A stretch of DNA of 64,000 nt from Hansfordia pulvinata (Eukaryota > Ascomycota > Sordariomycetes > Xylariales). This document shows positions 441-49,700 of the stretch, in pieces (positions within the stretch are counted from its first letter, which is position 1; every line of letters begins with the position of its first letter). The stretch lies in the NCBI GenBank assembly GCA_006538405.1, contig BJKQ01000005.1:682001-746000 (forward strand), in the 5' to 3' direction. The translations under genes were made by a program, and so were the position numbers. Below the pieces are notes generated by a model. It made no database searches, was not told the origin of the DNA, and worked only from the letters and a program-made list of their open reading frames with translations.

Positions 441-467
441 TCAGGCCCACTTCCCCAGGACGCTCAT
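441..467 (-). other. Probable terminal coding exon of the ZIP gene (MSVLGKWA-stop)
   Basis: Downstream of the apparent stop (TGA at 535-537), the minus strand has a CACTAAC branch site, an ACAACAG acceptor at 468-469 and then 27 nt encoding MSVLGKWA and a stop. That is the conserved C-terminus of fungal ZIP proteins. Joining it in frame to helix 8 needs a donor at 555 (GTCTCG, non-consensus). The perfect GTGAGT donor at 538 would instead give an immediate stop in the new exon. The exon looks real; the donor choice is unresolved. Confidence 0.65.
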
Positions 468-2702
468 CTGTTGTTTTTTCGTGTTAGTGAGAAAGAGAGA
501 GAGAGAGAGAGACAGAGGGAAGAGAGCGAAAAACTCACAACAACCATCCCGAGACCAGCCCGAGCCCGGCCAGCGAGGCGACCAGCGGCGAGGCGCGGCT
601 CAGCTCGCCGCCGAACATCCAGTCGGCGGCCCACATCTCGACGACGCCGACCCAGACCAGGATCCCCGCGGACAGGGCGTCGAGCGTGCCGATGGCGACC
701 AGCGTGCCCGGGTCGTTGCCGTTGAAGCGCGACAGCGCCCCGATCCCGATCGCCATGCCCGCGGGCGTCGTCACGGCGAAGCCCGCGGCCATGGCCAGCT
801 TGTGCGCCATCGAGAGCGACTTTGACGACGGCGACGGGGCTTCTGTGGCTGCGGCGGGGAGTCGGTTGTCCGCAGAAGTGGCGGTCTTGTCGTGGGAGTC
901 GGACGAGGAGGAGGAGGACTCGGCTGTGGCCGCCGCCGGGGAGGAGGAGGAGGAGGACCGCTGGGTGTGCCCCACCGAGGCGATCCGGCTGCCCAGCGCC
1001 ATGCCCTCAAACATCTGGTGGAACACGATGACGACGTACAGCGTGGCGAAGAAGCTGTCGCCCGCTACGACGACCGTGATGCCGATGACTTTTTGGGGGT
1101 TGTGCTTTTGTTAGCTTTCGAGTGCGCGGGGGGGGGGGGGGGGGGGGGGGAATCAGGGGGTTTTTCCAGAAGTGCAAGAGGAAGCTCGGGAATAACTTTC
1201 AAGGGGAAATGTCTCTTCTTCTCGTGGAGCAGGTGGGACCAAACGTACGGATGGAGTGGAAGATGATGCCGGCCTCGAGGACCAGCACGCTGACGGCCTC
1301 CTCGTTGTAGCGGGTGGCGCCGAACAGGCTGTGCGCCAGGCGGTGGCACACAAACTCGACGACGAACGACAGGAACAGCCCCGCCATCAGGACGGCGGCC
1401 GTCGTCGCCTCGTACTCGAGCTCCCCGAGGCACTCGTTGGTGAACATGAGCGACGCATGAGTGAAGAGCTTTTAGGGAGAGAGAGTCAGTCTCAGCCTTC
1501 AGGCACACAGAGAGAAGAAGAAAAAAAAAAGGGGGGGGGAAGACGGTGGTGGGCAGCTGCCTTGGGGGGGGGGGGGGGGGACCGAGAACTCACGTGGACA
1601 AAGGCGGTCGAGATGATGATGCCGGTGCCAAACTGCTTGACGATGGTGAAGACGACCTTGAAGTGGCCGGGCAGTGCCGGGGCGAGGAAGATGGGGATGA
1701 GGACGCCTGGGTGGGCGCGTCAGTTCAGCTCTGCGCGCCCTCCAGTCTCTTTGGACCAAAACAGAGAGAGAGAGAGTGAGAGAGAAAGACAGAATCAGAA
1801 AGACATACCGATCAGACTGGTGGCCAGCATGACAAACAGCAGCCCGATGCGCAGCCCAATGTTGTAGTCGCGGTTCTGCCGGGAGCACTGCGCGGCGCCG
1901 CCGCTCTCTCCCCCGGCGCCGGGGCAGTGTCTGCAGTCACGCGGAAGAGGCGAGATCCCGTCAGCAAAAAGAAAAAGTGTTGCCCGTGTCTGGCTCTCTG
2001 GACTCGGGTGTCGTCGATGACTTTCTCTCATCTCGAAACACCGAAACAGAGTGCAGGTGGGAGTGTGAGTGGAGTGCTAGTGGAATAGGTAGGAGACTCA
2101 CTCGACGCCGGCGTGGAAGTGGCAGCCCTCCCTGGCGCCCTCGGTCGACGCCGCCTCCTCTTCATCGCCGCCGTGCTCGTGGCCGGCCCCCTCCTCGCCC
2201 TCGGACGAACCGCCCTCGTAGCCGAGGACCTGGACCTCGGACTCGTCGGGGCCGAAACAGAACCTTTTGAGGGGGGAATCCCAGCAATGTCAGCAACAGT
2301 CGAGATTGCGTGGGGAGGGACAGAAAAAAAGAAGAAGAAGAAGAAAAAAACTCGATAAAGAATAGAAAACACTCACGTCTCGCTCCCGTGGCTGTGGCAC
2401 CCCGTGTACGCGGCCGGCTGCTCGCCCGTCGCCGTCGCCGGCACCGAGACCTGGTACTCGCTGGCGCCCGCCACGCAGTACACCGCCGTGCCGTGCGAGT
2501 GGCAGTCCGACAGCGCCGTCAGCTCCGGGGAGGAGGAGGAGGTGGAGGAGGTCGGAGTTGCCGCCGTCGTCGTCGTCGTCTGAGCCTGCCGGCGGTACGC
2601 TGCCCCAGCGGCGGCGGGGTACACGGCCCCGGAGAGCACGAGCTGCGAGCCCAGGCACGCGCAGAGGGCGAGCGCCTGTCTTGTTGTTGTCTGGGAGAGC
2701 AT
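441..2702 (-). CDS. ZIP-family zinc (iron) transporter with an extracellular Cys/His metal-binding N-terminus
   Basis: A plasma-membrane ZIP permease that would import Zn2+ (possibly Fe2+). My exons are 2702-2377, 2263-2102, 1930-1809, 1706-1594, 1468-1249, 1088-about 556 and 467-441, giving about 500 residues. Residues 1-30 are hydrophobic and look like a signal or lead segment. Three motifs follow: C67-H-S-H-x5-C76, C102-H-S-H-x5-C111 and C156-H-F-H-x5-C165, with a HEHGG patch near residue 138. The membrane core carries family hallmarks: IGLLFVMLATSLIG, a STAFVH segment, CLGELEYEATTAA, LEAGIIFHSI (metal-binding helix 4), VFHQMFEGMALG (helix 5) and TTPAGMAIGIG. A Ser-rich loop lies between helices 5 and 6. 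The last exon gives MSVLGKWA, the usual fungal ZIP end; if it is not used, the protein stops at 535. The long motif-bearing N-terminus resembles ZrfC-type alkaline transporters. The neighbouring surface-protein gene shares the motif. Confidence 0.9.
495..512. repeat. (GA)n tract inside the last ZIP intron
   Basis: A short GA dinucleotide run. Read on the coding (minus) strand it is a CT tract in the last intron of the transporter. Confidence 0.9.
1128..1150. repeat. 23-nt G homopolymer in a ZIP intron
   Basis: An uninterrupted run of G on the plus strand, which is poly-C on the coding strand, inside the intron between the two exons encoding helices 4 and 5. A second run of 17 G (1564-1580) lies in the preceding intron, and a third short one near 1532. 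Their true lengths may be misassembled. Confidence 0.9.
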
Positions 2703-3081
2703 GGTGGCGGCTTCGTCCTTCTCGCTGTCGTCGTCGTCGTCGTCGTCGTCTTCTCTCTCTACTTGGAGCTACTACCACCTCTGTCTTCTCTCCGGGTCGA
2801 AAAAGGAAGACTCTCCAGACGGAACTCTTTTCCTTTTTTCTTTTCTTTCTCTCGCTGGTTCCTCTCGTGAGCTGTTTTCTTGTATGCATGTAGGCTTATA
2901 TGATGATCGAGACAAGCTTTTGTCTTATAGCCAAGCCGCCGAAATCAAGGGCGATCAGCCCCGTCGCGGTTCTCTCACTCTCCCTCACCCCCCACACGTT
3001 CACGTACACACCCCCAAGGCGGAAGGCGGCGCGTCGAAGACGAAGAGAACCCGCGTGGACATGAGTGGCCAGCGAGCCGGG

Positions 3082-3104
3082 GTGTGTGTGTGTGTGTGTG
3101 TGTG
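3082..3104. repeat. (GT)n microsatellite
   Basis: A GT dinucleotide run of about 23 nt, followed at 3125-3148 by a (TCAG)n tetranucleotide run. Confidence 0.9.
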
Positions 3105-3626
3105 GGAGAGCACCACAGCAGCCATTCAGTCAGTCAGTCAGTCAGTCAATCAACCCGCCCCTGGTGAATGATGAGTGAGTGAGTGGGTGGGAAAGGGCGA
3201 GCAAGGTTCATCAAGGTTCTCGCTGCTGCGCCGAGAAGTCTTGGCCCTTGGCATCGTGGGTGGGAAAGGAAGAAAAGAGTGCGTGCCGAGAGAGGTTTGT
3301 TCCCAAGTGGCGGCACGTTGCGGCAACCCATGCCGCCCGGGGCGCCAAGAGTGAGAGAGGCTCTTGATCTTGATCTTGTTCTTCTTCCTGCTCGTGGGGT
3401 TTTATAGCCAAGAGATGAGGACCTTGAGGGCTCTTCTGGGCGGTGCGCCTGCTTCCCTTTGCGGATGAACCGCCGTGTCTTCTGCATCCACCACGGCGGC
3501 TTACTACTTACTCGAGTCTATCTGTGTATGTGGGCTATCGTACGCACTCGGCGACTCATCACACATGGCAACTCCGTCAGCACAGCGTCCTTGCGGTCGA
3601 TGCGAGTATCTCCTCACCAGAAGCAT

Positions 3627-3664
<38 letters not shown>
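3627..3664. repeat. (CAG)n trinucleotide repeat, non-coding
   Basis: About twelve CAG units in the intergenic region upstream of the ZIP gene. All frames stay open across it (poly-Q, poly-S, poly-A), but nothing around it supports a protein. Confidence 0.9.
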
Positions 3665-3665
<1 letters not shown>

Positions 3666-4165
3666 TGATCTGACAAGGCTTGCAAGCCGGGGCAAAAAAA
3701 AACTCCAACAATGTCGATTGTCCGGGAACACACAGGCGCCAAGCAACGCCCGACTTGGCAAAGTCTTGGTGATCTCCACCCACATCAACACACACGCACG
3801 CACGAACGCAGCACCTGACACACAGACGACGCTTCCCGCCGGAACGACTGTTCTCCTTATTTTGCTGCTGCTCTGACTAATAGCAATAATACGAGCAAGT
3901 CCACAGTTCCACTTTGGGGGGGGGGGGGTGGTACGAGTACCATGTTACATGAAAGCCGGCGCCTGTTTTTTTTTTGTGGTGGTGGTGGTATTGACGGAAG
4001 AGAGAGAAAGGGAAAGGGTCTGATTTTTTTATCTGATGATGTCCCAAAACCCAACCAACACGCGAGCAACGTGGGAGGAATATTCCGCGCAACTCTTGCC
4101 TTGCCCCTTGTCTGCCCTTTACCGCTCGTCGGTCGGCTCTCCGATTTCCCCCCTCCACGCCTCAC

Positions 4166-4972
4166 TTACAGAAGCAGCCCGGCGGCGGCGGCGGCGGCAG
4201 CAAACACGGCGCCCGCGGCGCTGCCCGCGTTGAGGGCGGCACCGGCGGTCACGGCCGGGGTCTCCTCCTCGCTGCTGCTGCTGCTGCTGCTGGTGGCGTC
4301 GCTGGTCTCGGCGGGCCCGTCGCAGTGCCAGTGGTCGCCGTGGGAGTGGCACCCGGTAGACTCGGTCGGGCTGGGGGCCAGCGACTCGCTGCCGCTGCCG
4401 CTGCCGCTGCCGCTGTCGCTGGTTCCGGTGGAGGTGGCGGCGGCGGAGACGGGGCCGTCGCAGTGCCAGTGGTCGCCGTGCGAGTGGCAGCCCGTGGACT
4501 CGGTCGGGCTGGGGGCCAGCGACTCCTCGCCGGCCTCGGACTCGTGCTCGTGCTCCTCGTCCTCCTCGCCGCTGGTGGCCGTCGCCGTAGCGGTGGTCGA
4601 CGTCAGCGTCGTGGTGGTGCCGGCGCCGGCGCTCGTGGACGCGGGTCCGTCGCAGTGCCTGAGGGTCGTGCCCGCCAAGATGCAGTCAGTTTTTTCGGAT
4701 CGGAAACGGGTCGGACAACGACAACAACAAGAAGAGGTGCCCTTCAACTTTCTTCGAGTAGGGCGCCTTGGGTTGCGCAGTGTGTGACTTACCAGTGGTC
4801 TCCCTGTTCGATCGGAACTTCAGTCAGCACGCGCTTCTTCTTCTAAGGGGGGGGGGGACTTGTTACTCACGTGGGACTCGCAGCCGACAGACTCGGTCGG
4901 CGAGGGAGCAAGAGTCTCCTGCGCCATGGCGATGGCGCCGAGGAGGAGGGCGAGGGCGGCAAAGGACTTCAT
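4166..4972 (-). CDS. GPI-anchored surface protein with three CHSHGDHWHC metal-binding repeats
   Basis: Exons 4972-4871 (102 nt), 4803-4793 (11 nt) and 4658-4166 (493 nt) join in frame to 201 residues. Residues 1-18 (MKSFAALALLLGAIAMAQ) are a clear signal peptide. Three repeat units follow, each reading LAPSPTES, V or T, GC, E or H, then SHGDHWHC and DGP. Ser/Thr-rich, Glu/His-rich and Gly-Ser linkers separate them. The C-terminus is a small-residue region followed by an Ala/Leu tail, as in GPI attachment signals. I infer a wall- or membrane-tethered zinc- or copper-binding protein. The same C-H-x-H-x5-C pattern occurs three times in the adjacent ZIP transporter, which lies downstream on the same strand. 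No catalytic domain is visible and I know no named family for it. Both introns have GTRAGT donors and CTGAC branch sites. Confidence 0.85.
4316..4525 (-). repeat. Two near-identical direct repeats of about 72 bp in the GPI-protein gene
   Basis: Copies at about 4316-4387 and 4454-4525 encode the second and third LAPSPTES...DGP units and differ at only a few bases, so the duplication is recent or homogenised. The first copy is partly interrupted by introns. Between them a CCGCTG hexamer run encodes Gly-Ser. Confidence 0.85.
4793..4803 (-). other. 11-nt micro-exon encoding G-D-H-W of the first metal motif
   Basis: The sequence GGAGACCACTG lies between a perfect acceptor (GAACAG, branch GCTGAC) and a perfect donor (GTAAGT). 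It supplies GDH plus two bases of W, completing C-E-S-H / GDHW / HC in phase. Without it the motif is lost and the frame shifts. Confidence 0.85.
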
Positions 4973-5258: not shown

Positions 5259-8227
5259 TACATACACACAGCCGTGGACAGGACGCAACGTCGGAAGCAG
5301 AGCTGGACCAGCCAGCCAAGAGGCGCGCCGCTCTTGGCAGCCGGGGCGCCTTTCTCTTTACCCCACGCCCCACGGAACGGCTTCCCTCCCCCTCCCCCTC
5401 CCCCCTCCCTACCTCCCAATGTCATTACGAGATGTACTCCGTACGAGCTGTGGTGAACGAACCCTGGTCGTCTGTCCTTTCGAGGCGCTGCCCATCCATT
5501 CTTGGCGATTCCCATTCCCATCCGCGCGTCCCACTCACTCGCTCACTCACTCACACCCCCCTTCCAATCAGCTCGCCGGGAGGACGTTTCCGAGGGGCCA
5601 AGAGCCCCGTCATGTTATGGCCATCAAGGTATATCCGTAATAAACAAGCCATCTTGGTTTTGATGCCAAGTTCTGCCCTCGGTGAGTTCTGGGCCGGCGG
5701 ACATCGGGGCCAGTGCTGGTCTTTCTGACGGTGGGCTCTTTTTTTGTGTGTGTTTGCAAGCAAACGAGGGCCCCCGCCGGCACCGAGTACGCAGGCAGTT
5801 CATCAGGGTCCGTAATTAGTTCAAGTGACTAAAAGCCCGCGTGTTGCCAAGTCGCGCACGGCTGGTGGTGAGGTGCGAGCTGCCCGCTGGATCATTGCTA
5901 TGGCCGCCCGCCAGGCGCGGCTGGTAGGTTCCAGACCGAGAGAGGCGGGGAGGAGGCGGAGGTTCAGTATCGACTACGACCTGCGTGCCAGAGTCTTCAG
6001 CGCGAGCACGAGGGTTCTCTTCGGCCAACTCACATCGAGTCCATGCCTTTTCCTTCCCACAGCTGCTGGACTGAATCTGAACGGGACTACGCCCCACAAG
6101 GGGAGGGCCGTCCTTGGGCTACCCATACATTACTTCGATGGGCCGCCACACAGAGTGTCAAGCGCGACGACGGGTTTTCGTGACTCAACCCCGGAGATTT
6201 CAGTAGTCTGAGGGCAAAGACTCCAGGGACGGGAGGCGCTCTTGGCGGCGACATCAAGGTATCGAGTGCCGTTTTCCGTGGGAGTGGATGGCGTCTTTCT
6301 CGCTCAACCTTTTTTTGGCGCAGATGAGGACTGTTCTCTTCTCCTCTTGTCTCTGCTTGGATAAGTGCGAGAGAAACAGAGAACGACGGCGAGGTTACCC
6401 CTCCTCAAGTGTGTGCAGATGTAAGCACTGCACTCTATTGTTCGCGCCACATGGACAATCGTCTTCTCTTTCCCCCCAAAAGAACCTTCATCAACCAAGA
6501 TGAAAGTCGGCTCGAACTCTGCGATAGACTCGTTCTGAAGCCCGCGGGTTAGACACGACCGCCACGATAGACTGGTCCCCTTATTCCCGGCTCCGAGCGA
6601 CGCCAGCAAGGCAGACCAAGCTTCTCAGAGCAGACGGGCATGTCGCCGCCTACAGCACTCGCCTGCCGGTCCGCCGAGTTGCCAGCCTGATCTCTTGCAG
6701 TGTCTCGCCGGGCTGTATTGTACAGGTCACAGGTGGCCAGCCAGGCCGCCATCAGCCCCGGCGCAAGCGAATAGACCACGCAGACACTTGCACTCAAAAG
6801 ACGGCTCGTGTAGTAAGCGGCGGTTCCCAAGGCGGGCTCCCAGACGGCTCGCGACTTGACCAACTTCCCCGCTGGTCCCACCGCCCGGGTCGCCCGTCAT
6901 TATGCGACTACGAGTACAGCGCCGGCGTGAGGCGCCACAGCCCCTGCCTGGCTTGCCGTCCGAAAGGCTTTCTTCAAACTTTGCCACGCCCAATGATCCA
7001 GGACTACCCAGGGTGCAAGGAGCGCATCCTGAAGCACGCCTGGCGAGCGCACCCCGGCGGCGGCCCGGGACTGCGCTTCCTCGACCGCGGGATAGACCAT
7101 CGGGACGGACCTGTGCCAGGTCCCGAGGGACGGCGGCGCGGGCCGCGCTCCAACCAGGCCGGCTCCCACCTGTTTGACGATCAAGGGCCGCACGGCGGCA
7201 ACAGGCTGACGGCCGGCTCCTTCCATCGCGGGCTGCCCCTCGCGGGACGTCGAGGGCACCGTCGGGGAGGGGCCTCGCGCCTGCTGAGCGACCTCCACGG
7301 CTGGGATACCAACCAACACGAGGGACCAGTTCCTCCGGGACCCGGGCATGGCATTCCGTCCGGAGTGGGGTCGACATCGCCGTCGGGATCCACGAGCCTG
7401 GACGGGGCTCCCGGGCATGGCGCGGGGTGGTGGTTGTCTTTGGCATCGAGAGGCCGGGAAGTCAACGATCCGTATAGCGTGGCGGGCACGTCGACAAGAC
7501 GACTGAGGCGAGGGGATGCTGCATGTCTGTGATTTGAGTGTAGAGAGTCTTGCATGTGGTGTGTTCGAAGACCAGAAAATGGAACATGAACACATCAATG
7601 CATACCTAAGGTGGTAGGTACGTACGGCTGGGAGTGATCAGTGTGATGCTGGTTGATGCCAGAGTTCAATTGATGCATACTGGTACACAGAATGCAAATG
7701 CAAATGTGCATTCAGCGGGGCGCGCGGATGGTAGATCGGATCTAACCCAGAGCGGGACCTCGGAGTAAACAAGACGCGTGCAACTGGCCAATGACCTGCG
7801 AGGATGCGACCTGCCACCGGCAAGTACCCGCCCGTGTCCTAGGTACATCTGCCCGTACCCTCCTCAATGCCTGCACCTCACTCAACCAAAGGTACCGCCG
7901 TGCTGACCTACTCGTACATCCGCACCTTACCTTATGTAATGTTATTATTGCTACCCGTACTTACCTCATACCCGGATTCTCCCCAGTCGACACTCATCCC
8001 ACCCAGGAGCTGGCTTCTTCTTCTACTTTCCCCATCCTCCGACTTGGCCGTTCGCCCTCTGGTCAGCATCCCGACACAGCGCCTTTCTGCTTTGCGCGCC
8101 CATCCCTCAGGACCCGAGCTCGTGCGACACTCGCCGCGGGCATCCTCGCCCCCTTCGCGACGCGCCAGCACCACCGCCCACAGCACCACCCACGCCCATC
8201 GCGCCCGCGTCGAGCAAGCCAGCAACC
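4973..8227. other. Intergenic: upstream of the GPI-protein gene and of bir1
   Basis: No gene is supported. It contains a (CAGA)n run (5081-5119), a long CA microsatellite (5200-5270), six GCCAAG/CTTGGC hexamers (5315, 5333, 5597, 5665, 5846, 6241) and two CAAGGT hexamers (5625, 6255). GC-rich open frames on both strands at 6727-7532 have no recognisable domain, signal peptide or splice structure. The last few hundred bases are the bir1 leader. Confidence 0.55.
5200..5270. repeat. (CA)n microsatellite with a CATA tail
   Basis: An almost pure CA dinucleotide run to about 5254, followed by CATA units. It lies about 230 bp upstream of the start of the GPI-protein gene. Confidence 0.95.
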
Positions 8228-10965
8228 ATGGCGTCTTCCGAGCCCACCGAGGACGTCTTCACTCTCGAGGGACGCCTGGCCTCCTTCCAGCTCCTCGCCA
8301 AGCCCGCTGCCAAGCGCAAGTCCACGGCCAAACCCAAGGCGGCCTCGGCCAAAACACTGGCATGGCCGCACAAACATCTGCATCCCGAGACGGTGTGTAC
8401 AAGACGCCGAGACGCTCCCCCAGGCGTCGCCATTCCAAGCGCGCACGCCTCCGGGATCACAACCAGCTAACTGACCCCCCCCAGCTTGCACGCGCCGGCT
8501 TCTACTTCAGCCCGACACCCGAATACCCCGACAACTCGATCTGCTTCCTCTGCTCTAGAAACGTAGGGGGGTGGGAAGAGGACGACAGCCCCCTAGCCGA
8601 GCACCTGCGCCTGTCTCCCGACTGTGGCTGGGCCATTGTGTCCGCCATCGAGTCCGGCCTCGGCGATTACGGCCAGGACGACCCCACGGCCGCCCCGATG
8701 GCCGAAGCTCGCAAGGCCACCTTTGGCGCGCGCTGGCCCCACGAATCCAAGAAGGGCTGGAAATGCAAGACGAAGCAGCTCGTCGAGGCCGGCTGGAAAT
8801 ACACCCCGACGTCCGAGTCCGACGACATGGCCACCTGCACCTACTGCCAGCTCGCTCTCGACGGCTGGGAGCCCAAGGACAACCCCATGTATGCCCCCAT
8901 CCGTTCGCCCCGTGTGCCGCCTCGCACAACGACACTGACACTGCTTTTCCAGGAACGAGCACTACAGACGGTCTCCCGACTGCCAGTTCTTCACCCTCAT
9001 GAACCAGTACCAGCAAGCATCCACCAAGAAGACCGCCGCCGCCCGCTCCAAGACCGCCAGGGCGTCCAAGGCTTCGCGCCTATCGGTCCAGTCCGAGACC
9101 ACCCTGCCCGCAGACTCGACCCTGGCCGACCAGTCCGTCAACCCCGATGACACCGTCATGACCACCACCTCCGTCATGTCCAAAGGCGGCACCAAGCGCG
9201 CCAAGGCCAAGAAGCCCGCCGCCGCATCCAAGGCCAAGAAGACGAGGGCCAAGAAGGATGAGGTTGTCGAGGTGTTGGAGGATCCTCCCGAAGTTGTCGA
9301 AGAACCCGCCGCCGCCGCGGCCAAGCCGACGCGAGGACGCAAGCGGGCCAGTGATGCCGTCGATGACTCTGTCCTGACCAATGCCGAGGCTCCCGCGCCG
9401 AAGAAAAGGGCCACCCGTGGTCACCGCAGCACCACTGCAGATATCTCGGCCGTCGAGCCCCGCCGGACGTGGACATGTCCGACGCCGAACCCGCAGCTCC
9501 TGCTGCCAAGGCCAAATCCAGTGCGAAAGAAAAGAAGCCCAAGGCGACCAAGGCTCGCCAGCCACGGAAGGGCTCCACTGCGTCTAACATGTCGCAACAG
9601 GAGGCTGACAGCCATGTGCTGGACGAGGAGGAGCTGAACCGGCAACTCGAGGCGGACTTTGATCGGCCGCTCTCCGACGACGAGAACATCGCTGCCGACT
9701 CGGACTCGGAGCGGCGAAAGGCACCTCCCAAGACCAAGGGCAGGAAGGCCGCCCCGAAAAAGGCAGCAGCTGCCGCCCAGGACGAACCATCCACGAATCA
9801 TGCCATGTTCGACCCGGAACCCCAGCCTATAGACGAGGCCGAGATCTCCGCCGAGCTGAAGGAGCTCGAAGCGGCGATGAGAGACGAACAACCCGAAGCT
9901 TTGGAGGTTCCTAAGAAGGGCCGGAAGGCTGGCCCGAGGAAGGTTTCGAAACAAGCCACCAAGAAGGCGCAGAAACAGCCCTCGCCTGTTGTCGAGCCGG
10001 AACCCGAGCCCGAGCCGGAGGTTGAGGCCCACCCCGAGCCTGAGCCCGAAATAGCGACGGAGGCCGAACCAGAGGTCGACGCGGAATCCGAGCACGAAGC
10101 CGAACCCCCGGCAGGGCCCGCGATCCCTGAAGATATGGACGAGCTGGCGGATGATCACGAAGACAGCATCCTCAGTAATGCCACGGTTGTGAACAAGCGG
10201 AGCTCTTCGGCGGCGCCGCGTGCTTCTTCCGTTGCCCCACGCGCGTCGTCTGCTGCGCCCGCAGCGCCGCCTAAGAAGCGCGGCCGCCCAAGCAAGAAAG
10301 AAGCCGCGGCCAAGGCGGCCGCCAAAGCTGCCGAGGCCTCCAGAGCGGCTCCCATTGAAGAGGAGCAAGAGGACGAGTTGCTCAGGTCAAGCGAGCCCCC
10401 TCGGCCCAAGACGGCATCGTCTGCCAGAGAAAAGTCTGTGCCCCCGCCGGTCGTGGAGAGGGATGAGCTTGATTCTCCTTCTACGCCGAAGACCAGGGCC
10501 TCCTTGACGGCCGCTGCTAAGCAGGCCACCATCTCGCCGTCCCAGTCGCCTCAGTCGTCCGATGCCGAGAACCAGCCTCCGTCATCGCGCCCATCCACCA
10601 CCACGGCAAGCCAGCGCATAGCTCTCGCCCCCGTGGCCGCGACCCCGGCGCGGACTGGGGCCTCTTCGCCGTCGAAGCGCAACATACTGTCCAACTTGCA
10701 GACCAGTCACCCTTGGGATTCTTTGGACCTCGACATGGTGTTTGAGGACCTGGACAAGGAAAACGCCATCGGCTCGGCCAAGTACCTGAAAGGCCATGGC
10801 GACCTCTCGAGCCCGGAAAAGCGCATGAGCGTCGAGGAGTGGATCTACTACAACGCCGGGCAAGCGGAGCAGAAGCTGAAACACGAGTGCGAGGCCGCCG
10901 TAAGTGCCTTTGAGCGCCAGGGCGCCCAGGCCATGCAGGCGCTGGAGGGGTTGATGGTAGAATGA
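8228..10965 (+). CDS. bir1: Bir1/survivin-family chromosomal passenger protein (one-base frame break)
   Basis: Two N-terminal BIR zinc-binding repeats identify it. The first has GFYF, CFLC, a Trp, then H and C in EHLRLSPDC. The second has CTYCQLALDGW and HYRRSPDC. Bir1/survivin is a subunit of the chromosomal passenger complex with Aurora kinase and INCENP, acting at centromeres and the spindle midzone. A long basic/acidic disordered middle follows, including an AT-hook-like KKRGRPSKK. The conserved end reads WDSLDLDMVFEDL and EEWIYYNAGQAEQKLK. Exons are 8228-8392, 8485-8888 and 8953-10965, with CTAAC/CTGAC branch sites. The start ATG sits in AACCATGG. About 860 residues result if one base is restored near 9458-9461, where the frame changes with no credible intron. 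Confidence 0.9.
9458..9461 (+). other. Single-base frame break in bir1 at a CCCC run
   Basis: Frame 2 runs through TADISAVEP and frame 1 resumes at DVDMSDAEPAAP. One extra C in the CCCC run joins them seamlessly. Confidence 0.75.
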
Positions 10966-46740: not shown

Positions 46741-49700
46741 ATGCCATCCCACAATAAGAATCGTCGCCAGGCCCAGCCGCCTCCGGCAACCGTTCCCGCT
46801 CCGGCTCCGGCATCGACACCGGTCGCCGCCCCGCCAACCCCAAAGGTCACAGCCAAGTACACCAACAAGGACGGCACCAAGTATATCTCGGTCCCCAAGT
46901 CTTCTGCCTCGACCACGCCAACCCAAACGTCACCCGCTCCTCCCGCCGAGCCCCAACCGACTGTCAACCACAAGAAGCAAAAGCGACGCGCCAAGGCTGC
47001 CGCCAAAGCTGCCGCAAAGCAGCTCGAAGATGCCGCCAACGGTGCCGCCAGTCCAGTCTCGACCAGTAGTGCCGACGTTGATGCTACGCCGACGCCATCT
47101 GCCACCGCCGTAGCGCGTACCTTCTCAGGCCAATCCCATCCTCGCTCAGCAGCGTCCATCGCGCATTCGCACGGCGAGCAAGGTGACTGGGGGGACGACA
47201 CCGAAAGCGACGATGATGCTCACTACGATCCTTCCTCGGCGGGCCAGCCGTCAGCCAACGGCTCCACAGCCAAGTCCAAGAAGTCCAAGAAGAAGAAGAA
47301 GAAGGGTGCGGCGGTCAATCTGGAAGCCTCCCCATCTGCCGCCGGCGGCATCATCGACTACACTACCACCCAATCGGCGCCTAATCCCACTAATGGTCTT
47401 ACCAAGGAAAAGATATGGAATACGTCAGTCCCTGAGGAGCGGGAGCGGATCAAACAATTCTGGCTTGGCCTCGGCGACAAGGAGCGCAAGTCCTTGGTCA
47501 AGGTCGAGAAGGATGCTGTGCTCAAGAAGATGAAGGAGCAACAGAAGCACACCTGTAGCTGCTCCGTTTGCGGCCGCAAGCGTACGGCTATCGAAGAGGA
47601 ACTCGAAGGACTTTATGATGCGTACTATGAGGAGCTCGAGTCGTTCGCCAACCAGCCCCATCACCCGCCAGAGGGCACCTCCATGTTTGGAGCCCCGGGC
47701 CCGAAGAAGTTTGGAACCATGACTGGCCTCCACCCGCCACCGTCTTTACCATCACGCTACGCCCACCATCACCCGCCTCGGGGTCGCATGGTAGAGCATG
47801 TCGACAACGATGAAGAGGTGGACGAGGAGGATGACGACGATCTCGCCGACGAGGACGACGAAGCCGACGACTATAGTGAAGAGGACGAAGACGATCTCGA
47901 CGACGAGGAGGACGACGAAGACGAGCCCGAGGAGATACCGCGAGAGCCCTTCCAAAACGATTTCTTTCATTTCGGACAAAGTCTGACTGTCAAAGGTGAG
48001 CCCGACCTGGTTTTGCGCAGTGGGAGGAGGGTCGCGGTTCGTTGGTTCATTGGGGCACTAACTCTCTCTCTCAGGGGGCATTCTCACTGTCGCCGATGAT
48101 CTGTTGAAGAACGATGGAAAGAAGTTTATCGAGATGATGGAACAGCTCGCCGAGAGACGCATGGCGCGCGAGGAAGACTCGGCCAAAGACCACTACGCCC
48201 GCTACGGTCATTCCGTTAATGACGCTCCTCTTCCCCCTCACAACCATCCGCCACCCGAAGAAGACGACTATGACGAAGAGGACGAGGGCGAGGACGAGTA
48301 CGACAGCCAGGAGGATGAGTACGAGGACGAAGAGGTATTGGGCTTTTCCCCATGTCGCCATGGTGACATGGCCTTTGCGTGACGAATTGCAGACTGACAG
48401 CATGACAACAGGAGACAATGACCGAGGAGCAGCGTATGGAGGAGGGTCGTCGGATGTTCCAGATCTTCGCCGCCCGCATGTTTGAGCAGAGAGTGTTGAC
48501 GGCGTATCGCGAAAAGGTCGCCAACGAACGCCAACAACAACTGCTGGAAGAGCTGGCACTCGAAGACGACAAGAAACTCCAGCAAGCCGCCAAGAAAGCC
48601 ACGGCCGCACAGAGGAAGAAAGACCGGGCCGCGCAGAAGAAGCAAGCACAGCTTGAAGAGAAGGCTCGGAAGGAAAGCGAGAAGGCTGCCGAGGAAGCTG
48701 CGCGGGCTGCTGAGGAGGTCAAGAGGGTGGAGGAGGCCAAGCGCAAGGCGGAGGAGAAGCGGAAGAAGAAGGACGCGCAGAAGAAGGCAGAAGAGGACGA
48801 ACGGCTACGCAAGGAGTCGGAGAGACAGCGACGCGCCCACGAGCAGAAGGAGCGACAGGCCGAACAAGAGCGCAAAGCCCGCGAAGCCAAAGAACGCGAG
48901 AAGAAGGCCAAGGAAGAGCAGCGGCGTAAGGAGCAAGAGGCCCGCGATCTTAAGGAGCGCGAGACTCGTGAGCGACGCGAAAAGCACGAGAAGGACAAGC
49001 GAGAAAAGGAGCTCCGGGCTGCTCAGGCAAAGGCGGACCGCGACGCCAAAGAGAAGCAGAAACAGGAGGACAAGGCCCAAAAGGCGGCTGCTCTTGCGGC
49101 GACCGCAACCGCAACTGCACCTACGTCGGGTCCGGGTGCCGCCGCGTCTGCGCCAATTCCGGCTCCCAGCCAGCCAGCAAAGAAGCCAGCCCCCGTGTCC
49201 GCTACGACTACGCTGCCTTATCATCACGCCTCGCCACAAATCCCAGTCGCCACGCCCGCGTTGCCAAAGGCGCCGACGCCCATGAAGCCGAGAGCTGTAT
49301 CCCACGAGGTGATACGCTCGGTTTCTCAAGCCTCCCACTCGGCGTCTGGGCCCAGCCAAAATGCCTCACCTCTTCCACTCACACCTGCTCACTCGAGTCC
49401 AGGCCCGGGGGGTCCCCCGAGCCAAACACCTTCAGTGGGTCCCATGAGTGCCGGCATTCCCGTTCAGCGAAACTCGCCCCTGCACTCGACGATGAAGAGT
49501 CCGCCAGGCCTAGGCCACGGGCCTTTCAGCTCCAGCCTGCCGCCCATGAACATGCCGTTTGGGCCGGGCCATACGATACCGCCGCCCGGTTTCGCCGGCC
49601 CTCAGGGACACATGTTCCCGCCCGCTCCCAACTTCCGCTCAGGGGGCATACCAGGGGCTCCTCCCGGCCTGGGCGGTCCAATGCCGATGGGTTCCAACCG

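What the first reader, a model, noticed from the sequence alone, without database searches (positions are those of the whole stretch)
441..4972. Adjacent ZIP transporter and GPI-anchored protein share a C-H-x-H-x5-C metal module: a candidate surface zinc-capture system
The ZIP N-terminus has three copies (C67-C76, C102-C111, C156-C165) and the neighbouring GPI protein three copies (CESHGDHWHC once, CHSHGDHWHC twice), all with the same ten-residue spacing. The established parallel is the Aspergillus alkaline zinc system, where a ZrfC-type ZIP with N-terminal zinc motifs is genetically linked to a secreted zincophore (Aspf2/Pra1 family). Here the linked gene is not Pra1-like. It encodes a short wall-tethered protein made almost wholly of the transporter's own ligand motif. 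I infer a relay: wall-anchored repeats concentrate the metal and the transporter's matching motifs accept it.
Basis: partly seen in the sequence, partly recalled or inferred. Interest (0 to 1): 0.9.

Follow-up and report, generated by a model that had tools for sequence, protein, structure and literature searches.

The report
Wall-anchored zinc trap beside zinc transporter
A fungal zinc transporter sits next to a gene for a small cell-wall protein made of repeated metal-binding hairpins; the two genes stay together in many related fungi and carry the same kinds of predicted zinc- and pH-control sites, so they look like a zinc-capture team unlike the one already known.

Summary
A ZrfC/Zrt1-type ZIP (minus strand, 2702-535) has three C-H-x-H-x5-C motifs; the neighbouring predicted GPI protein (minus strand, 4972-4166) has three of the same ten-residue spacing. 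New evidence: an intron cuts the module at the same codon position and phase in both genes; all six motifs in two folded relatives are predicted beta-hairpins turning at positions 5-6; ZafA-like zinc sites and PacC-like pH sites are enriched before both genes. One correction: across the family the wall-protein motif is C-E-P-H-G-D-H-W-H-C; His at position 2 occurs in 25 of 333 copies. The conserved core is a histidine triad, HxxHxH, as in streptococcal Pht zinc scavengers. Best reading: a wall-tethered histidine-triad zinc trap serving the adjacent ZIP, in the place that Pra1/Aspf2 holds elsewhere. Metal binding and transfer are untested. New variant of a known kind.

The parts
535..2702 (-). 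ZIP (ZrfC/Zrt1-type) transporter gene, 498 aa; exons 2702-2377, 2263-2102, 1930-1809, 1706-1594, 1468-1249, 1088-535
   Evidence: Pfam PF02535 5.7e-31; 56-57% identical to ZIPs of Monosporascus and Hypomontagnella; model; fold of relative P0122 matches BbZIP
441..467 (-). candidate last ZIP exon (MSVLGKWA*), out of frame with the canonical splice
2475..2504 (-). ZIP motif 1 CHSHGTAVYC (C67), uninterrupted
2257..2399 (-). ZIP motif 2 CHSHGSETFC (C102), cut by intron 1 in codon 8, phase 2
1924..2124 (-). ZIP motif 3 CHFHAGVEHC (C156), cut by intron 2 in codon 8, phase 2; the form CHxHAGxxHC is in 179 of 181 ZIP relatives
4166..4972 (-). secreted, predicted GPI-anchored wall protein, 201 aa; exons 4972-4871, 4803-4793 (11 nt), 4658-4166
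   Evidence: 214 homologues at E<=0.01, of which 120 were listed, those with Pfam label PF28209
4652..4882 (-). wall-protein motif 1 CESHGDHWHC, spread over three exons; second cut in codon 8, phase 2, as in the ZIP
4460..4489 (-). wall-protein motif 2 CHSHGDHWHC (residue 95)
4322..4351 (-). wall-protein motif 3 CHSHGDHWHC (residue 141)
3207..3221 (+). ZafA-like (ZR) site TTCATCAAGGTTCTC in the ZIP promoter, score 16.8
3417..3431 (-). ZafA-like (ZR) site GCCCTCAAGGTCCTC in the ZIP promoter, score 17.9, exact match to the published ZR consensus
5620..5634 (+). ZafA-like site GCCATCAAGGTATAT upstream of the wall-protein gene, score 14.8
5799..5813 (+). weaker ZafA-like site TTCATCAGGGTCCGT, score 12.7
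2930..3759 (.). seven PacC-type GCCAAG sites upstream of the ZIP (2930, 3240, 3247, 3344, 3407, 3738, 3754)
5315..5851 (.). six PacC-type GCCAAG sites upstream of the wall-protein gene (5315, 5333, 5501, 5597, 5665, 5846)

Best explanation
The two genes form a zinc-uptake locus induced by zinc starvation and alkaline pH. The small protein is secreted and tethered by a GPI anchor to membrane and wall. Its repeated ten-residue beta-hairpins, each probably closed by C1-C10, carry H4, H7, H9 and E/H2 on one face and hold zinc as histidine-triad sites. The array concentrates zinc in the wall next to the neighbouring ZIP, whose extracellular N-terminal domain carries similar hairpins (H2, H4 and partners) that accept zinc and feed it to the eight-helix pore. 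Shown here: conserved linkage, shared motif spacing, shared intron position (on splice models), architecture, promoter-site enrichment. Inferred or predicted: hairpin fold, metal identity, Cys role, wall location, hand-over, induction.
For: Linkage: 29 of 33 organisms on contigs of identical length, 19 of these contigs under 600 kb (chance expectation for those 19 about 0.08), 10 pairs with consecutive tags. Shared module: intron at codon 8, phase 2 of the motif in ZIP motifs 2 and 3 and wall motif 1; all six motifs of the two folded relatives are hairpins turning at positions 5-6; profile comparison E=5e-4, probability 32%. Conservation in 333 flank-anchored copies: C1 327, H4 328, H7 327, H9 312, C10 322. 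Regulation: two ZR hits >=16.8 in the ZIP promoter, none >=16.5 in 140 kb of arbitrary loci and the other 61.6 kb of the window; pattern YCMTCAAGGTYCTC, drawn from these two sites, has 17 hits in 46.8 Mb (reversed control 2), three of them in the 4.1 kb before another ZIP of the genome; GCCAAG 7 and 6 per 1.2 kb against about 1 expected, 0 of 500 shuffles each. Precedents: Pra1-Zrt1 locus (PMC3386192, passages); PhtD HxxHxH to AdcAII zinc transfer (PMC3842936, abstract and passages).
Against: No metal binding, expression or knock-out data. Cysteines in an oxidising wall may not be ligands. The wall-protein ligand set (E2/H4/H7/H9) differs from the transporter's (H2/H4), so motif likeness does not prove hand-over. 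The wall gene's own ZR hits are moderate (14.8 and 12.7; chance of two such hits about 0.001 to 0.01). A strong ZR hit (16.8) also lies about 2.8 kb from another ZIP gene, in L013, so single strong hits occur elsewhere. With the full PacC consensus GCCARG the enrichment is weaker (7 and 7; 3 of 500 shuffles each; 3 of 308 random windows and 7 of 140 windows elsewhere in the window reach seven), and I saw the GCCAAG sites by eye before I counted them. The genes lie in tandem, without the shared divergent promoter of aspf2-zrfC. Four of 33 organisms did not show linkage. The AlphaFold model of the wall protein is weak overall (pTM 0.22).
Confidence: 0.66

Rival explanations
1. The wall protein is a zinc (or general metal) sink: it stores or buffers metal in the wall, or blunts metal toxicity, and passes nothing specifically to the ZIP. 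Linkage reflects shared regulation only.
For: Disordered Ser/Thr-rich linkers with His/Asp/Glu clusters look like a buffer; the ligand sets of the two proteins differ.
Against: ZafA-type sites, through which zrfC and aspf2 are induced in zinc starvation (PMC6070888, passages and one table), fit uptake better than storage of excess; the intron position and the predicted hairpin are shared with the transporter's acceptor region.
Confidence: 0.2
2. The metal is copper or another ion; the ZIP and the Cys/His hairpins serve that ion.
For: Cys/His hairpins can bind Cu(I); ZIPs can be broad in specificity (recalled).
Against: The promoter sites are of the zinc-regulator type and are shared with another ZIP of the genome.
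Confidence: 0.07
3. The hairpins are disulfide-closed structural or adhesive repeats, with metal binding incidental.
For: C1 and C10 are cross-strand partners in the predicted hairpin (inference); short GPI wall proteins are often adhesins (recalled).
Against: Near-invariance of three histidines (328, 327, 312 of 333) and linkage to a zinc importer are hard to explain by structure alone.
Confidence: 0.07

Closest known systems
Pra1-Zrt1 (Candida albicans) / Aspf2-ZrfC (Aspergillus fumigatus) zincophore locus
   Same: ZIP linked to a secreted zinc-binding protein; zinc and pH control; Pra1 bears a C-terminal CHTHxxGxxHC motif that resembles the ZIP motif CHFHAGVEHC (PMC12663325 passages; PMC3386192 passages; PMC5812535 passages)
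   Different: partner here has no HRXXH (PF13933) domain, is predicted wall-anchored and repetitive, and lies in tandem with no shared promoter; motif is ten residues, not eleven
Streptococcal polyhistidine triad proteins (PhtD) with AdcAII
   Same: surface protein with repeated HxxHxH zinc sites in short beta units, gene in one operon with the importer's binding protein, zinc transfer shown in vitro (PMC3842936 abstract and passages)
   Different: bacterial, ABC importer; flanking cysteines are not part of the HxxHxH motif described there; Strep_his_triad is only a sub-threshold Pfam hit (12 of 23 members, best E 0.077), so convergence is likelier than descent
Pfam PF28209 proteins (several named 'GPI anchored protein' in Pezizomycotina)
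   Same: the wall protein belongs with these homologues by sequence (214 at E<=0.01, 120 listed)
   Different: I found no function for this family; the model is not in the local library

Membership tests
ZrfC/Zrt1-type ZIP transporter | ZIP domain PF02535 above cut-off | tested here: met
   108.4 bits against 35.1
ZrfC/Zrt1-type ZIP transporter | eight helices and invariant TM4/TM5 His-Glu ligands | tested here: met
   eight helices in the model of relative P0122, BbZIP best match; H312, H338, E342 invariant in 16 sequences. That these are the ligands is recalled
ZrfC/Zrt1-type ZIP transporter | long N-terminus with several zinc motifs (four putative ones in A. fumigatus ZrfC, PMC4343018 passage) | tested here: met
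   three C-H-x-H-x5-C copies; two to five in 120 of 120 listed relatives. The letters of ZrfC itself were not compared
ZrfC/Zrt1-type ZIP transporter | linked to a Pra1/Aspf2 gene | tested here: inconclusive
   no PF13933 found in the genome at E<=0.001 or 10, but no control genome rang; the neighbour is not PF13933
Pra1/Aspf2 zincophore | HRXXH domain (PF13933) | tested here: not met
   no hit in the wall protein
Pra1/Aspf2 zincophore | C-terminal CHTHxxGxxHC | tested here: not met
   the Cys/His motifs of the window protein are ten-residue C-x-x-H-G-D-H-W-H-C. Some ascomycete Pra1 also lack this motif (PMC12663325)
Pra1/Aspf2 zincophore | gene linked to a Zrt1-type ZIP | tested here: met
   adjacent here; 29 of 33 organisms
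Polyhistidine triad (Pht) protein | repeated HxxHxH | tested here: met
   three copies in the window protein; H4, H7, H9 in 328, 327, 312 of 333 copies in relatives
Polyhistidine triad (Pht) protein | Strep_his_triad PF04270 above cut-off | tested here: not met
   12 of 23 members hit at E<=10, best E 0.077; the window protein, member 1, not at all
GPI-anchored wall protein | signal peptide and hydrophobic C-terminal tail | tested here: met
   hydropathy at both ends in the window protein and in 105 of 120 relatives; no dedicated predictor was run
GPI-anchored wall protein | actual wall attachment | not testable with these tools
   needs cell fractionation
PF28209 family | model match above cut-off | not tested
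   model absent locally; the 120 listed homologues carry the label

The most novel reading that the evidence does not exclude
Filamentous ascomycetes have a second kind of zincophore system, unrelated to Pra1: a wall-fixed array of disulfide-stapled histidine-triad hairpins whose module shares an exon boundary with the transporter's own acceptor hairpins, so that donor and acceptor of a metal relay arose from one module by exon duplication.
Probability: 0.4. Interest if true: 0.86.

Novelty: new variant of a known kind. Interest (0 to 1): 0.68.

Why it matters
[quoted passage not shown] How fungi without it capture zinc at alkaline pH is open. A linked, wall-fixed partner found across several classes of Pezizomycotina would be a concrete answer, convergent with streptococcal Pht proteins, and makes the question testable with two short genes. 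It would also give a function to a family (PF28209) for which I found none.

Tried and rejected
Pra1 in this genome: two PF13933 searches empty, but the control never rang, so absence is not claimed. Afu4g09600, which I recalled as a possible A. fumigatus counterpart, is CweA, a putative GPI-anchored cell wall protein listed with the number 848 beside its name, so it was dropped. PDB sequence search with the wall-protein profile gave only four chance-level viral glycoprotein chains (best E 0.97); with the ZIP profile nothing at E<=0.01, although the fold search finds BbZIP. Weak Pfam hits to the wall proteins (Serglycin, DUF6234; VWC2L_2nd in 5 of 23 members, best E 1.1e-4) were set aside as composition or cysteine effects. 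Paralogues of the wall protein: only its own two pieces in the genome. Linkage outside Sordariomycetes could not be settled: for Orbilia oligospora the two lists hold different strains, and I saw no Eurotiomycete among the 120 ZIPs listed or. Intron positions in relatives could not be tested, as only their proteins were available. My first conservation count used a pattern that fixes C1, H4 and C10; I replaced it by a count anchored on the flank.
Full report
What is there. The window lies in a 46.8 Mb genome of 63 contigs (C5:682001-746000), from a filamentous ascomycete, by protein similarity near Xylariales (inference). On the minus strand, a ZIP gene (2702-535, six exons, 498 aa) is preceded in tandem by a small gene (4972-4166, three exons, 201 aa). 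The ZIP has PF02535 at 5.7e-31. The wall protein has a signal-like start, Ser/Thr-rich linkers and a hydrophobic tail; 105 of 120 listed homologues pass the same crude hydropathy tests at both ends.

The micro-exon and the shared intron position. Wall-protein motif 1 is spread over three exons, CESH | GDHW | HC, with an 11-nt middle exon. Its second intron falls in motif codon 8, phase 2. ZIP introns 1 and 2 cut motifs 2 and 3 in codon 8, phase 2 as well. Under random placement the coincidence of two further introns is about 4e-5 (a rough estimate made after seeing the data). This argues that the module is homologous in the two genes, or that one was seeded from the other. It rests on my splice models; no transcript was available.

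The family and the corrected motif. The wall protein has 214 homologues at E<=0.01, 120 listed, in Sordariomycetes, Eurotiomycetes, Leotiomycetes, Orbiliomycetes, lichen fungi and others, the 120 with the Pfam label PF28209 (classes from genus names, recalled). In them the repeat is (A)PSPTESVG-CEPHGDHWHC-(D/E)GP. A first count used a pattern that fixes C1, H4 and C10 (329 copies, one to four per protein). Counted from the flank instead, 333 copies have C1 327, H4 328, D6 326, H7 327, W8 310, H9 312, C10 322, and at position 2 E 279, H 25, V 11, Q 7, K 4. So C-H-x-H is a minority form, found in two of three copies here. In the ZIPs the 413 copies of C-x-x-H-x5-C found before the last 300 residues all have H2, two to five copies per protein, and 179 of 181 ZIPs carry CHxHAGxxHC.

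Structure. AlphaFold2 models of relatives P0122 (ZIP, mean pLDDT 75.4) and P0013 (wall protein, 61.6, pTM 0.22) show eight transmembrane helices plus a well-predicted beta region before them in the ZIP, and three hairpins in disorder in the wall protein. All six motifs have the turn at positions 5-6. In such a hairpin residues 1/10, 2/9, 3/8 and 4/7 pair, which places C1/C10 with 3/8 on one face and 2, 4, 7, 9 on the other (geometry, inference). So the likeliest site is E/H2-H4-H7-H9 with C1-C10 as staple; the two copies with H2 here would have four histidines. The models hold no metal. The ZIP model matches BbZIP, E 8.9e-6. A profile comparison of the two families aligns motif to motif, E 5e-4, probability 32%, which is suggestive only.

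Linkage. Of the wall-protein list 101 of 120 rows, and of the first ZIP list 109 of 120, were compared; they share 24 organisms, and in 21 both proteins lie on contigs of identical length. Total 29 of 33. Of the four misses two compare different strains (Biscogniauxia mediterranea, Orbilia oligospora); for Rosellinia necatrix and Triangularia verruculosa the listed ZIP lies on another contig, and I could not tell whether it is the right paralogue or assembly. Nineteen of the 29 contigs are under 600 kb, the smallest 46,955 bases. In 17 linked pairs both tags were visible. Ten are consecutive: four Monosporascus strains, Pestalotiopsis fici, Truncatella angustata, Chaetomium sp. MPI-CAGE-AT-0009, Fusarium decemcellulare, Phialemonium thermophilum, Staphylotrichum longicolle. 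Seven are not, all of the 'DRAFT' kind (tags), whose numbers need not follow position (recalled). In Chaetomium sp. MPI-CAGE-AT-0009 and C. tenue a second ZIP lies on another contig, so the link is with one ZIP. Equal contig length is a proxy for identity of contig. Lists were truncated at 120, so presence and absence across fungi were not measured.

Promoters, zinc. From 71 published A. fumigatus ZafA sites (PMC6070888, table read) I built a score matrix. The ZIP promoter has hits of 16.8 and 17.9 at 505-730 bases before the start codon; the wall gene has 14.8 and 12.7 at 650-840 bases (known sites: median 14.2). Fourteen arbitrary 10-kb stretches gave five hits >=12.5 in 140 kb, the rest of the window eight in 61.6 kb, none of these 13 >=16.5. 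The chance of four hits in 2.4 kb is 2e-6 to 3e-4 by these two rates. Internal control: a ZIP of the same genome in one open frame (L011, ORF 5752-6984), which I call ZrfA/B-like because it lacks the N-terminal motifs (no tree made), has hits of 16.7, 13.6 and 14.3 in the 1.3 kb before its likely start and 17.6 and 14.5 further out. The 10-kb stretches with four other ZIPs have none (L012), one of 16.8 about 2.8 kb from the ZIP (L013), one (L014) and two (L015); their places against the genes were not worked out further, and L010 has none. The pattern YCMTCAAGGTYCTC, drawn from the two window sites, occurs 17 times in the genome (reversed control 2); two are the window sites and three lie in the 4.1 kb before the ZrfA/B-like ZIP. 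The published consensus with AA core is found 230 times against 111 for its control, so it is no rarity by itself.

Promoters, pH. I saw the GCCAAG sites by eye, then counted: 7 and 6 per 1.2 kb, mean about 1 in shuffles, 0 of 500 each; 0 of 308 windows in random loci reach six, 3 of 140 windows elsewhere in the window do; the ZrfA/B-like ZIP has 3. With GCCARG, the published PacC consensus (PMC3618310, passages): 7 and 7, 3 of 500 shuffles each; 3 of 308 random windows and 7 of 140 elsewhere in the window reach seven. A ZIP of Trichoderma virens is discussed among the regulated transcripts of that PacC and pH paper (PMC3618310 passage); I did not establish that it is the orthologue.

How it probably works and what it resembles. 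See best explanation. The locus works like Pra1-Zrt1 (linked secreted zinc binder and ZIP; PMC3386192 passages) and like PhtD-AdcAII (surface HxxHxH array beside an importer, zinc transfer shown in vitro; PMC3842936, abstract and passages), but the wall protein is a member of neither by the tests made. Pra1's C-terminal CHTHxxGxxHC peptide binds zinc (PMC12663325 passage) and looks like the ZIP motif CHFHAGVEHC with one residue more, so the idea of one hairpin shared by scavenger and transporter may be older than this locus (inference).

In print. A search for the repeat's letters and for PF28209 found no paper; two narrow searches on GPI, ZIP and zincophore or Pra1 found none. In wider searches none of the titles and abstract openings that I saw is about this pair (15 of 26 listed; 10 of 19 listed). 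The library holds open-licence papers only, and of papers I read passages or a section, not whole texts. Of the neighbours, a BIR-domain frame on one side and a CDH-cyt-domain frame and an alpha/beta-hydrolase-like frame on the other show no evident link to zinc.

Verdict. Observation confirmed; interpretation partly supported and made more precise; new variant of a known kind.

Noticed in passing
441-560: The last ZIP exon (MSVLGKWA*) is recognisable, but canonical GT-AG splicing leaves it out of frame, so the protein would end ...GWLL where most aligned relatives end ...LGKWA. Real truncation, odd splice or assembly error.
   Followed up: partly
1130-1150, 1565-1581: Introns hold long G/C homopolymer runs, places where sequencing errors are likely.
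   Followed up: no
7867-9150 (+): Open frame with two BIR stretches (survivin/Bir1-like), E 7.3e-34.
   Followed up: partly
L010:8482-9126: Left of the window lies a frame with a CDH-cyt haem domain (E 1.6e-26).
   Followed up: no
46741-48099 (+): NST1 'salt tolerance down-regulator' domain, E 2.4e-51.
   Followed up: no
whole window: CAAGGT occurs 50 times against 29.5 expected; the exact ZR consensus with AA core is about twice its reversed control genome-wide.
   Followed up: partly
L011:1810-5443: The single-frame ZIP on C2 has five ZafA-like hits >=12.5 in the 4.1 kb before it, a candidate for another importer of the same regulon.
   Followed up: partly
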